From Helicobacteraceae bacterium (GTDB lineage Bacteria; Campylobacterota; Campylobacteria; Campylobacterales; Sulfurimonadaceae), in assembly GCA_026988515.1 (NCBI GenBank), contig JALSLA010000019.1:1-62134 (forward strand): a stretch of 62,134 bases of DNA, given 5' to 3'. The notes beneath the pieces are model-generated. The model did not search any database, was not told where the DNA came from, and saw only the letters and a program-made list of their open reading frames with translations. Below are positions 23,447 to 38,720 of the stretch, piece by piece. Numbering within the stretch: the stretch's first letter is position 1; the number at the start of each line of letters is the position of its first letter. The translations under genes and the position numbers were made by a program.

Positions 23447-23794
23447 ATGAAGATGTTGATTTTAGGTTTATCATTAATGATAACACTCTATTCAAACAGC
23501 GCCATGGCTGACAGCGCCAATGGAAAAATTATTTTTGAGGCAAAAGGGTGTGTCATGTGCCACCAAAAAGATATGGATACGGTCGGTCCTTCGTTGCGCA
23601 CCATTGCTATTGGCTACTCGGGCAAAGAGAGTACGCTGGTCGCGTATCTTAAGGGGCAGGGTGCACCGATTATTGATCCTTCGCGCGCATCGGTAATGGC
23701 ACCGCAGTTGGTTAAAATACGCATGCTCTTTGAAGATGAGTTTCGCGATTTGGCAGAGTATATTGTGGCATCGGCAGATCGTCCGGTCTACTAG
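23447..23794 (+). CDS. Monoheme class I cytochrome c
   Basis: Signal peptide; GCVMCHQKDMDTVGPSLRTIA; ORF track extends to 23402 but MKMLILGL is the likelier start. Confidence 0.85.
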   Translation: MKMLILGLSLMITLYSNSAMADSANGKIIFEAKGCVMCHQKDMDTVGPSLRTIAIGYSGKESTLVAYLKGQGAPIIDPSRASVMAPQLVKIRMLFEDEFRDLAEYIVASADRPVY

Positions 23795-23846
23795 TGAGGA
23801 TTTTGTTGTATCATGAAAAAAATATTAATTGCAAAGGTAAGCAGTA

Positions 23847-25052
23847 ATGAAACGTCGTTTTTTTTATATATTTAGTACATTGTTGGTGTTGCATACGGGA
23901 TTGTTTGCAGCTGAAACAGAAAAAGCAGCATCGAAAGAGAGCGCTCTGACTGAAGATGAAAAATTTTACGGAACGGAATTGCGTTCGAGTAAAAAAGTGG
24001 TGCATCCTCCGTATGAATGGGGTGACTGTACGGTTTGCCATACCGATGCCAAAGGCGAGGGCGGGTTGGTGCAAGATCCGCCGGAGTTGTGTTATATGTG
24101 CCATGAGCCCAAAGACAGCAAAAAGTTTATTCACGGTCCGGTTGCCGCAGGCGCCTGTACTGCGTGTCACAACCCTCATGAGTCAGAAAACTCAAAATTG
24201 CTGGTAGCATCGAGTATTAATGAGCTTTGTACATCGTGTCACCAAGCCAAAGGGGAGTTTTTGCATACAACGACACACATTCATCCTCCGGTACAAGACA
24301 AGTGTACCAACTGTCATGATCCGCATACCGAAGATCACCTTTACCAGCTTAAAGCCGACCGTTTTATGGATCTTTGTGTGATGTGTCATGTTGACAAAGA
24401 GGTGTGGACACGTGAAGTCAGCGTGAAACACGGTGCATTGAATCGTCCGCGTAAATGTTTGGAGTGTCATGATCCACACGGTTCGGAAAATCCGAAATTT
24501 CTTATTAAAGAGACCTCTAAAGAGCTCTGTCTAACCTGTCACAATCAACGGCTTGTTACCGATGAAGACGGCTACAAACTGACTAATATGGCAAAGCATC
24601 TCGAAGAGAATCCCGATTGGCACGGTCCGATTTTATGGGGTGATTGTGCAGCGTGCCATAATCCGCACGGCTCTAACAATTTGCGTATGCTCAAAAAACC
24701 GTTCCCGAAAAAATTCTATGATAAGTTTGATAAAGATCACTATATCTGTTTTGAGTGTCATGAGCCTGAAAAAATTCAAGATGAGTTTACCACGACGGCA
24801 ACGAACTTTAGAAACGGCGATAAAAACATGCACTTTGTACATGTAAATGGGAAGAAAGGGCGTACGTGTCGTGCTTGTCACGATTTTCACGGAACCAAAG
24901 AGTACCCGCATCACTTGCGTAAAAAGACGAGTTTCGGTAAAATCAACTTTCCAATCCGTTATATTGAAACAGATACCGGCGGATCATGTGCACCGGCATG
25001 TCATGCGCGGCGTTATTATGATAGAGAAACACCAAAGGTGAATTTAAAATAA
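23847..25052 (+). CDS. Multiheme cytochrome c, doubled-CXXCH type (11 CXXCH + CX3CH)
   Basis: Signal peptide; CTVCH, CYMCH, CTACH, CTSCH, CTNCH, CVMCH, CLECH, CLTCH, CAACH, CFECH, CRACH plus CAPACH. Confidence 0.95.
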   Translation: MKRRFFYIFSTLLVLHTGLFAAETEKAASKESALTEDEKFYGTELRSSKKVVHPPYEWGDCTVCHTDAKGEGGLVQDPPELCYMCHEPKDSKKFIHGPVAAGACTACHNPHESENSKLLVASSINELCTSCHQAKGEFLHTTTHIHPPVQDKCTNCHDPHTEDHLYQLKADRFMDLCVMCHVDKEVWTREVSVKHGALNRPRKCLECHDPHGSENPKFLIKETSKELCLTCHNQRLVTDEDGYKLTNMAKHLEENPDWHGPILWGDCAACHNPHGSNNLRMLKKPFPKKFYDKFDKDHYICFECHEPEKIQDEFTTTATNFRNGDKNMHFVHVNGKKGRTCRACHDFHGTKEYPHHLRKKTSFGKINFPIRYIETDTGGSCAPACHARRYYDRETPKVNLK

Positions 25053-25053
25053 G

Positions 25054-37900: not shown

Positions 37901-38114
37901 CATCTTTAATGCGGTCTCGGTTGTAGCATACAGCTCTATTATTATGACCTATTTTGGGGTCAACTACTATCTGTCGGGGCTGCATTCGTATGCGTCGGGT
38001 GATCCGATTCCCGTTCCGGTATGGATCTACTATGCCGTTTCTGTAGTGATTATTATGATTGTCGCCGCCTCGTTTAATCGTAATAAGTTGGTAACGATTA
38101 AGAAAGGAAAGTAG
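34953..38114 (+). CDS. ccsBA: CcsBA (ResB-CcsA fusion) system II cytochrome c synthase
   Basis: ResB-like N-terminal half; CcsA-like C-terminal half with WGRYWGWDPKETWAL WWD motif. Confidence 0.96.
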   Translation: MNTVIKKIWSFLISMKLMVVLVLLFAIASGVATFIENDHGINTSWALVYSSWWFEAIQILLGISIVGNVIRFKMYQKKKIPVFIFHVAFLFILVGSGITRYFGYEGVMHIREGATQNEMISSDAFLQVTAKKGSQEHHLEEIVYISELGGKKFHYEMDVDGKELEVSYKDFIGKAVKTAVADADGQPLVSFVISTPQGPDSYFLNQGQFVDAGPLLVYFDKMPINRTPYIRFMHKDNKISFISNVPIQWMRMADRKQKVFQANTEHPLEAGSLYNVNGVQVVVKAVLEKGRVKVVDEAEYLAAGHMKMNTQPLSALIVDVEYDGEHREVALMGKGKRYKGFTEMFTMGDVELSVEWGSKMLQLPFSLWLRDFILVKYPGSMSPSSYESHVTVIDEANGVREPYRIYMNHILDYGGFLFFQSSYDKDEQGTILSVNHDPGKWPTYVGYMLLAVGFILTLLSPYSRFGKLARTKYELNTAAVMVVAAFLAFSFSQPLMAKDTQALIKEVSKIDKEHADYYGTMLVQSRDGRTKPLDTATTNLLNKIAGTSSMFGLNHNQIILGMASRPDVWKQLEMIKASHPKLKKMLGMEESQKRFAYEKAFDRHGNYLLASIAEEALRKRPGERGTFEKDVIKVDERVNVAYFVYSGRFMRVFPLEGEAANKKWHYPEEALTTFPPKAAAEVRALLRQNAKGLAVGLREGNWEQANAAIDAIKAYQQKYGAAVIPDPAVTKAELLYNKLQIFERLYPIYLLSGLILLAFIFVRLARPRLSLVTLTRIVWGVLILSFIAHTISLGMRWYISGHAPWSNGYEAMLYISWSIILAGILFAKSSELALATTSIFAGIALFVAHLSWLDPQITTLVPVLKSYWLTIHVSIITASYGFLGLSTLLGFIVLIFYIMLGKDNKKNERISVNILEATRISEMSMIVGLFLLTIGNFLGGVWANESWGRYWGWDPKETWALVSILVYVFVTHMRFVPILRSNFIFNAVSVVAYSSIIMTYFGVNYYLSGLHSYASGDPIPVPVWIYYAVSVVIIMIVAASFNRNKLVTIKKGK

Positions 38115-38132
38115 AGTAGAGCGCCCAAGGAG

Positions 38133-38720
38133 GTGTCAGTGAGACCATTTTATGCGGCGGTTATATCAGCTGTTTTCCTTTTAAGCGGCTGTTCCTCGCT
38201 TCGGATAACCAGCGATTATGACCGTCATTTTAATTTTGACACACTCTTGCGTATTGATGTTGCCTGTGTTCCTCGCGATGATGGAGAGAACTTTGCTCGT
38301 GAGCGCATTGTAAAACAAATCATAACAACCCTTCGGCATCGTGGCTTCGACATTACAGACAACGAGAGTGCGGCCCTGCATATCAAAATCTATCTTACCG
38401 TACTTCAGAAGAGCAGAGCGGAAACCCGATACGATTATGTTCCGGCTGCCTTTGCAGGCTACTACCGACCACAATATTTTGCACAGACCTTTTACAGGCA
38501 ACGTTACTGCAACAATGATGCACTTCTCTACCGCATGAATACTACATATGATTATGACGAGCAGCGGCTAATTGTCGAGATACGTGAGGCAAAAAAGGGA
38601 GATATTGTCTGGCATGGTGTCGCTGTCGATACATTTTCAGACAACAGTAACGAGCGTTATAGCAACGCATATATACAAAAGCTTGTGGAAGCATTGCTAA
38701 AAGATTTTCCCCCACATTAA
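38133..38720 (+). CDS. Lipoprotein of unknown function (DUF4136-like pattern)
   Basis: Lipobox LLSGCSS; compact alpha/beta sequence. Confidence 0.65.
   Translation: MSVRPFYAAVISAVFLLSGCSSLRITSDYDRHFNFDTLLRIDVACVPRDDGENFARERIVKQIITTLRHRGFDITDNESAALHIKIYLTVLQKSRAETRYDYVPAAFAGYYRPQYFAQTFYRQRYCNNDALLYRMNTTYDYDEQRLIVEIREAKKGDIVWHGVAVDTFSDNSNERYSNAYIQKLVEALLKDFPPH

What the first reader, a model, noticed from the sequence alone, without database searches (positions are those of the whole stretch)
23447..38720. Candidate extracellular electron transfer system in a Campylobacterota genome
Seen in sequence: twelve same-strand genes encode a monoheme cytochrome, three large multiheme cytochromes, a tetraheme cytochrome, two NHL-repeat proteins, a parvulin PPIase, a ~600-aa outer-membrane beta-barrel, CcsBA and two exported accessory proteins. 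Together they hold up to 37 potential heme sites. Established knowledge: multiheme cytochromes plus a barrel make porin-cytochrome conduits in Geobacter and Shewanella. From memory, NHL-repeat and PPIase genes also neighbour filament-forming cytochromes such as OmcS/OmcE in Geobacter. Inference: this locus exports electrons across the outer membrane or assembles a cytochrome filament, a function not generally attributed to this phylum.
Basis: partly seen in the sequence, partly recalled or inferred. Interest (0 to 1): 0.88.

Follow-up and report, generated by a model that had tools for sequence, protein, structure and literature searches.

The report
OmcE-type nanowire locus in Campylobacterota
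A bacterium from a phylum not known for it carries a complete-looking gene set for an electrically conducting protein wire, plus a channel that would feed it electrons through the outer membrane; much the same set recurs, gene by gene, in several other bacterial phyla.

Summary
Twelve same-strand genes (23447-38720) encode 34 CxxCH haem sites plus three spaced variants, two of them invariant. The tetraheme protein (26348-27106) is a full-length member of the family of Geobacter OmcE, the nanowire subunit solved as 7TFS (profile E 3.9e-48), with exactly eight invariant histidines. MHC10 (32151-34187) is an OmcE-like domain fused to a second multiheme domain. The 608-aa protein models confidently as a 28-strand barrel whose best solved match is MtrB of the Mtr complex. 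MHC11 and MHC8 match MtrA. The order OmcE-NHL-PPIase-barrel-NHL-MHC10, often with CcsBA and MHC11/MHC8, recurs in Campylobacterota, Aquificota and Nitrospirota, and with diverged barrels in Ignavibacteria/Bacteroidota. OmcE and MHC10 occur in the same 11 of 399 Campylobacterota genomes, including the isolate Nitrosophilus alvini. A NapC-family quinol dehydrogenase lies elsewhere in this genome and beside the locus in others. Best explanation: an extracellular electron conduit (quinol to NapC-like to MHC8/MHC11 in barrel to MHC10 to OmcE filament). Filament formation, direction and substrate are inferred, not shown. New variant of a known kind: Mtr-like conduit plus OmcE wire, different from OetABI.

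The parts
23447..23794 (+). c1: exported monoheme cytochrome c (ORF may begin at 23402)
   Evidence: Pfam Cytochrom_C 2.8e-8; recurs beside MHC11 in Campylobacterota and some Aquificota loci
23847..25052 (+). MHC11: exported 12-haem (11 CxxCH + CX3CH) MtrA/DmsE-like cytochrome, proposed to run through the barrel
   Evidence: only strong PDB relative MtrA of 6r2q, E 1e-17; DmsE-family hit 2.5e-32 but below cut-off; all 12 sites invariant in 20/20
25054..26091 (+). MHC8: exported octaheme cytochrome, proposed periplasmic carrier (TTG start)
   Evidence: paired-CxxCH family; PDB hit MtrA 1.6e-12; paralogues on C40
26348..27106 (+). OmcE-type tetraheme: proposed filament subunit
   Evidence: 7tfs OmcE E 7.9e-20 full length, profile 3.9e-48; eight invariant His in 41/41
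27269..28357 (+). NHL1: six-bladed-propeller lipoprotein
   Evidence: NHL 9.1e-24; lipobox FTAC in the window protein, lipobox-like in 28/42 homologues
28377..29309 (+). SurA/parvulin-type PPIase, proposed chaperone
   Evidence: Rotamase_3 6.6e-20, SurA_N_3 2.1e-16
29313..31139 (+). 28-strand outer-membrane beta-barrel, MtrB-like fold
   Evidence: AF2 pLDDT 89.7; Foldseek best hit 6r2q_B E 1.1e-11, TM 0.48/0.46 against about 0.3 for the next barrels; no Pfam/PDB sequence hit
31140..32138 (+). NHL2: exported propeller, directly upstream of MHC10 in nearly all OmcE-type loci
   Evidence: NHL 7e-27
32151..34187 (+). MHC10: exported 10-12 haem cytochrome, N-terminal OmcE-like domain (about 1-240) fused to a conserved C-terminal multiheme domain; proposed wire-to-conduit adaptor
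   Evidence: OmcE hit 1.1e-27 over residues 5-225; C-terminal domain has no good PDB relative; over 1500 homologues
34339..34899 (+). acc186: exported accessory protein of unknown family
   Evidence: no Pfam; recurs in 11/13 Campylobacterota and 5/7 Aquificota loci
34953..38114 (+). CcsBA fused cytochrome c synthetase, second copy beside one on contig C64
   Evidence: ResB + Cytochrom_C_asm
38133..38720 (+). DUF4136 lipoprotein
   Evidence: PF13590 1.9e-19; recurs in Sulfurimonas loci
38744..39673 (-). exported lipoprotein-like 309 aa, recurrent neighbour in Sulfurimonas loci
39723..40235 (-). small cytochrome c, recurrent neighbour
   Evidence: Cytochrom_C 1.2e-7
40254..41000 (-). Sel1-repeat exported protein, recurrent neighbour
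   Evidence: Sel1 7.5e-44

Best explanation
The locus makes an extracellular electron conduit that ends in an OmcE-type cytochrome wire. Proposed path: quinol (from H2 or sulfur oxidation) is oxidised by a NapC/NrfH-like tetraheme cytochrome encoded on contig C40; electrons pass over periplasmic multiheme carriers (C40 set, MHC8) to MHC11, an MtrA-like 12-haem cytochrome seated in the 28-strand MtrB-like barrel; MHC10 receives them at the cell surface and, through its OmcE-like domain, docks to the first subunit of a filament made of the tetraheme OmcE protein, which carries them to minerals, other cells or an electrode. The NHL propellers and the PPIase help export and assembly, and the extra CcsBA attaches the haems. 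Shown here: homologies, haem sites and their histidines, barrel fold (predicted), gene order, co-occurrence. Inferred: polymerisation, docking, location of each cytochrome, direction of flow, substrate.
For: OmcE homology is full length, with eight invariant His and no other, the number that four bis-His haems need. The barrel's best of 350,542 PDB chains is MtrB of the Mtr complex, clearly ahead of TonB receptors and LptD. MHC11 and MHC8 hit MtrA and little else. Order OmcE-NHL1-PPI-barrel-NHL2-MHC10(-acc186-CcsBA) is kept at roughly 22-60% protein identity across Campylobacterota, Aquificota and Nitrospirota; a diverged barrel-sized protein fills the same slot in Ignavibacteria/Bacteroidota. 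OmcE and MHC10 were found in the same 11 of 399 genomes (Fisher p 1e-21 taking genomes as independent). The NapC-family protein on C40 (PF03264 2.9e-33) has relatives inside the fetched stretch of 11 loci. In Geobacter and in ANME partners each wire is expressed together with a conduit (PMC10553843).
Against: No filament, current or metal reduction has been observed. AlphaFold could not model the OmcE protein without haems (pLDDT 53) and Foldseek found nothing with that model, so the subunit interface is untested. MHC10 carries the same domain with the same eight His, so the domain alone does not prove polymerisation. MtrB similarity is of fold only (TM 0.48, 11% identity). MHC11 is below the DmsE curated cut-off. 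In G. sulfurreducens the physiological need for OmcE is disputed (PMC11077965, PMC13194489). Only about 3% of good Campylobacterota genomes have the locus.
Confidence: 0.75

Rival explanations
1. The same conduit and wire run inward: the cell takes electrons from Fe(II), sulfide minerals, a partner cell or an electrode and passes them to quinone and its terminal oxidases or a molybdopterin reductase.
For: From general knowledge NapC-like quinone enzymes and multiheme wires can run both ways; the genome has three haem-copper oxidase-type hits and several molybdopterin oxidoreductases as possible acceptors; in ANME consortia similar gene sets are read as inward (PMC10553843).
Against: The organism also has two NiFe-hydrogenase large-subunit genes and so a soluble donor; no iron-oxidase gene was looked for outside the locus or seen in it.
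Confidence: 0.25
2. A conduit without a wire: the OmcE-like tetraheme stays monomeric or short and acts as a surface terminal reductase or shuttle on a porin-cytochrome complex.
For: The OmcE-like domain also occurs fused in MHC10; one to three OmcE-like genes per locus suggest diversification.
Against: Full-length match to a filament subunit with all eight His kept, including the N-terminal one; in OmcE a His of the neighbouring subunit ligates a haem (PMC9473688).
Confidence: 0.2
3. A purely periplasmic respiratory branch (for example towards a soluble reductase), the barrel being an unrelated porin.
For: DmsE- and NrfB-like hits of MHC11/MHC8/MHC10.
Against: No reductase gene was recognised in the window's block; the barrel slot is kept between OmcE/PPIase and NHL2 in most OmcE-type loci; the barrel resembles MtrB best.
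Confidence: 0.05

Closest known systems
OmcE filament of Geobacter sulfurreducens (GSU0618, PDB 7TFS)
   Same: Tetraheme of about 230-250 aa, full-length sequence homology, signal peptide, conserved haem-ligand histidines
   Different: Here within a fixed locus with a barrel, two NHL proteins, PPIase, an OmcE-domain fusion cytochrome and MtrA-like cytochromes, in Campylobacterota; the Geobacter neighbourhood could not be fetched for comparison
MtrCAB / PioAB / MtoAB porin-cytochrome complexes
   Same: MtrB-like barrel fold; MtrA/DmsE-like multiheme cytochrome; NapC-family quinol enzyme (as CymA, from general knowledge)
   Different: 28 predicted strands and no sequence homology to MtrB families; 12 instead of 10 haem sites in MHC11; no MtrC, its place proposed for MHC10 plus OmcE
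OetABI cluster of ANME partner bacteria and Desulfuromonadales (PMC10553843, PMC5539420)
   Same: Wire-type cytochrome + barrel + PPIase + six-bladed propeller in one cluster; MHC10's C-terminal domain also occurs beside 26- and 16-haem cytochromes in Nitrospirota
   Different: No 16- and 26-haem cytochromes, OmcE- instead of OmcS/OmcX-type subunit; the MHC10-like protein of the 26/16-haem loci lacks a detectable OmcE-like domain

Membership tests
OmcE family (extracellular cytochrome filament subunit) | Full-length sequence homology to OmcE with four CxxCH | tested here: met
   7tfs E 7.9e-20 single, 3.9e-48 profile, four CxxCH
OmcE family (extracellular cytochrome filament subunit) | Eight histidine ligands for four bis-His haems | tested here: met
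   His 29, 50, 53, 110, 167, 218, 221, 250 in 41/41
OmcE family (extracellular cytochrome filament subunit) | A haem ligated by a His of the adjacent subunit (PMC9473688) | not testable with these tools
   AF2 model too poor; which His it is was not established
OmcE family (extracellular cytochrome filament subunit) | Forms extracellular filaments | not testable with these tools
   needs microscopy
Mtr-type porin-cytochrome complex | Barrel of the MtrB/PioB sequence family | tested here: not met
   no Pfam family in 36 homologues but one stray Porin_3 hit; no PDB sequence hit
Mtr-type porin-cytochrome complex | MtrB-like barrel fold | tested here: met
   Foldseek rank 1 6r2q_B, E 1.1e-11, TM 0.48; a resemblance of fold, not membership
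Mtr-type porin-cytochrome complex | MtrA/DmsE-family decaheme | tested here: inconclusive
   MHC11 to MtrA 1e-17; TIGR03508 112 bits against cut-off 192
Mtr-type porin-cytochrome complex | MtrC/OmcA-type extracellular decaheme | tested here: not met
   no OmcA/MtrC family hit above cut-off in any locus protein scanned with NCBIfam
OetABI conduit | 16-haem and 26-haem cytochromes with PPIase and propeller | tested here: not met
   PPIase and NHL present, no such cytochromes
OetABI conduit | OetI-type barrel | tested here: inconclusive
   barrel profile A4 does not hit the partial barrel ORFs of the 26/16-haem loci L083, L086, L090; no full OetI in hand

The most novel reading that the evidence does not exclude
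The locus is a self-contained wire-plus-conduit module shared by several phyla, in which MHC10 is the physical adaptor: its OmcE-like domain caps or seeds the OmcE filament by the same histidine exchange that joins filament subunits, while its C-terminal domain plugs into an Mtr-like complex of the barrel and the 12-haem MHC11. It would answer how a cytochrome nanowire is attached to the outer-membrane conduit.
Probability: 0.4. Interest if true: 0.85.

Novelty: new variant of a known kind. Interest (0 to 1): 0.68.

Why it matters
How electrons pass between cytochrome nanowires and the cell interior is 'not well understood' even in Geobacter (PMC10553843). Here the wire subunit, a barrel, an MtrA-like cytochrome and a fusion of the wire domain to another cytochrome sit in one conserved block, which makes an anchor hypothesis testable. 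It also bears on a second puzzle: a Sulfurimonas showed MtrA-like genes without a recognisable porin (PMC11748539) and another reduces solid Mn(IV) oxide (PMC9122950); this barrel escapes sequence-family searches and would have been missed. If true, H2- and sulfur-oxidising bacteria of several phyla can use solid acceptors or donors.

Tried and rejected
AlphaFold/Foldseek of the OmcE protein: model too poor, no matches. Periplasmic-only pathway: rejected, see rivals. Membership in Mtr or OetABI: defining features tested and not met. An OmcZ/OzpA reading of the second MHC10 locus on C41 (octaheme with TIG domain + S8 subtilase + PPIase): suggestive, but the octaheme has eight plain CxxCH and its relatives carry no OmcZ name, so left open. 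Baquero 2023 and Wang 2022 are not in the library. No paper found that describes this locus in Campylobacterota. Rfam: nothing in the window. Promoter/terminator scan: one promoter-like site at 23342-23369 before the block, but the number of such sites is only modestly above shuffles.

Full report
What is there. The window is contig C19 of a 1.99-Mb, 97-contig genome, 97.8% complete. Twelve + strand genes lie between 23447 and 38720; all but CcsBA begin with a hydrophobic signal-like N-terminus and show no later transmembrane segment. Haem sites: 34 CxxCH and three spaced variants, against a shuffled expectation of about 0.2 for the four multiheme proteins together.

The tetraheme is an OmcE. 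phmmer against all PDB chains gives two hits: 7tfs, which PMC12954529 lists as the OmcE filament (E 7.9e-20, residues 8-252), and 9yuq (2e-16), a 'putative multiheme cytochrome c' with 16 copies in its entry. A profile of 41 homologues reaches 3.9e-48 and 6.1e-44; OmcS comes only at 2.8e-5 through a short haem motif. In those 41 sequences, from several phyla, exactly eight histidines of the window protein are invariant: four of CxxCH and His29, 53, 167, 221. That is the number needed for four bis-His haems. In OmcE and OmcS a haem is ligated by a His of the next subunit (PMC9473688); His29 near the mature N-terminus is my candidate, not established.

MHC10 is a fusion. Its residues 5-225 match OmcE (1.1e-27), with the corresponding eight His invariant in 12/12 homologues; its remaining 440 residues form a separate, strongly conserved multiheme domain with no close solved relative. 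More than 1500 homologues exist. In a different type of locus in Nitrospirota/Deferribacteres (PPIase, 26-haem, 16-haem, 5-6-haem: OetABI-like by comparison with PMC5539420) the C-terminal domain is kept (E about 1e-110) but the OmcE-like domain is not detectable. The N-terminal domain therefore goes with the OmcE type of wire, which is the basis of the adaptor idea.

The barrel. No family or PDB sequence matches. With 36 diverse homologues AlphaFold2 gives pLDDT 89.7 and 28 strands (count from the listed elements). Foldseek's first hit is chain B of the Mtr complex (E 1.1e-11, TM 0.48/0.46); other large barrels follow at TM about 0.3. MHC11's only strong PDB hit is chain A of the same entry (MtrA; the library labels it as cystathionine beta-synthase), 1e-17, and MHC8's too, 1.6e-12. 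MHC11 keeps twelve haem sites in 20/20 homologues.

Conservation of the set. The barrel is in 4 of 4 genomes of the own genus and in 7 of 101 relatives. One scan of GTDB species genomes with the MHC10 profile gave 370 confirmed places, 77 loci kept. In loci with at least 6.5 kb upstream: Campylobacterota OmcE 13/13, NHL1 12/13, PPIase 12/13, barrel 12/13, NHL2 13/13; Aquificota 7/7, 7/7, 3/7, 6/7, 6/7; Nitrospirota 7/8, 6/8, 6/8, 6/8, 6/8 (the Nitrospirota figures include 26/16-haem loci). In Ignavibacteria/Bacteroidota NHL2 6/6 and OmcE 5/6; the protein in the barrel slot is mostly 550-610 aa, often ends like an outer-membrane protein and, in three loci, matches the barrel profile (1e-13 to 1e-18). 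The proteins have diverged far, so order is kept by selection rather than recency. OmcE and MHC10 were sought independently in 399 good Campylobacterota genomes: both in the same 11 (the six weak MHC10 hits, E 2e-5 to 8e-4, not counted). G138 is Nitrosophilus alvini or a genome identical in this protein: it contains P0091 exactly, on a contig of the same length, and carries the complete set in order, with a two-component system between MHC8 and two OmcE genes.

Link to the quinone pool. The genome has a second multiheme block on C40: a membrane-anchored NapC/NrfH-family tetraheme (PF03264, 2.9e-33), and 3-, 11-, 7- and 8-haem proteins. Relatives of that NapC-like protein (44-85% identical) lie inside the fetched stretch of 11 of the loci, in Sulfurimonas, Sulfuricurvum, Persephonella and others. 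This ties the locus to quinol oxidation or quinone reduction. CcsBA in the locus is a second copy. The genome also has two NiFe-hydrogenase large-subunit genes, oxidases and molybdopterin oxidoreductases, so an H2-oxidising respiratory life is likely; I did not identify its acceptors.

History. In the MHC10 tree Campylobacterota and Aquificota each need two changes of label, far fewer than shuffled labels (21 and 10); the window protein sits inside a Sulfurimonadaceae group. This fits an old set with many losses and perhaps a few transfers; bins may hold foreign contigs and the tree was the quick kind.

How it probably works. See best explanation. Shown: homology, haem ligands, predicted barrel, order, co-occurrence. 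Inferred: that MHC11 sits in the barrel, that OmcE polymerises, that MHC10 joins the two, roles of NHL and PPIase, direction. I lean outward because quinol enzymes of this family usually oxidise quinol and the host has hydrogenases, but inward flow is a serious rival.

What is known. OmcE wires, Mtr conduits and the OetABI wire-plus-conduit cluster are known. EET by Campylobacterota has been suggested: a Sulfurimonas MAG had MtrA-like genes but 'no pcc was complete' and an undetected porin was invoked (PMC11748539); 'Ca. Sulfurimonas marisnigri' reduces Mn oxide (PMC9122950). No paper that I could read describes this locus; the survey of nanowires by Baquero et al. 2023 could not be read and may list OmcE homologues from the phylum. 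Hence 'new variant of a known kind'.

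Noticed in passing
L092:6595-13331 (G000 contig C41, about 46594-53330): Second multiheme locus: octaheme with TIG domain, S8 subtilase, PPIase and a second MHC10 paralogue (687 aa, 59%). Subtilase + octaheme + PPIase recalls the OmcZ/OzpA operon, but OmcZ homology was not shown.
   Followed up: partly
L093:7109-7864 (G000 contig C30): Solitary second OmcE-type tetraheme, 251 aa, 48% identical to the one in the window; two further partial hits on C46 and C16.
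   Followed up: no
L091:6106-10805 (G000 contig C40): NapC-like tetraheme plus 3-, 11-, 7- and 8-haem cytochromes; the same set stands beside the main locus in Sulfuricurvum and others.
   Followed up: yes
L095:3212-6148, L097:16105-19059, L013:4598-7537: A two-component system with an extra exported sensor-like protein lies inside the locus, just before the OmcE genes, in Nitrosophilus alvini and two other genomes: candidate regulator. The window has similar kinase/regulator genes at 44123-45800.
   Followed up: no
L083, L086, L090: 26-haem + 16-haem + PPIase loci in Nitrospirota/Deferribacteres carry an MHC10-like protein whose N-terminal domain is not OmcE-like: N-terminal domain swap on a common C-terminal domain.
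   Followed up: partly
window 32151-34187 (residues 299-313 of MHC10): Invariant CX12CH in MHC10, a possible unusual haem-binding motif.
   Followed up: partly
PDB 6r2q chain A in the solved-structure library: The MtrA chain is labelled 'Cystathionine beta-synthase' in the library; a label that could mislead annotation.
   Followed up: no
window 12252-13265 and 13746-14327: Di-haem cytochrome c peroxidase and a Tll0287-like haem protein near the start of the window; ordinary.
   Followed up: no
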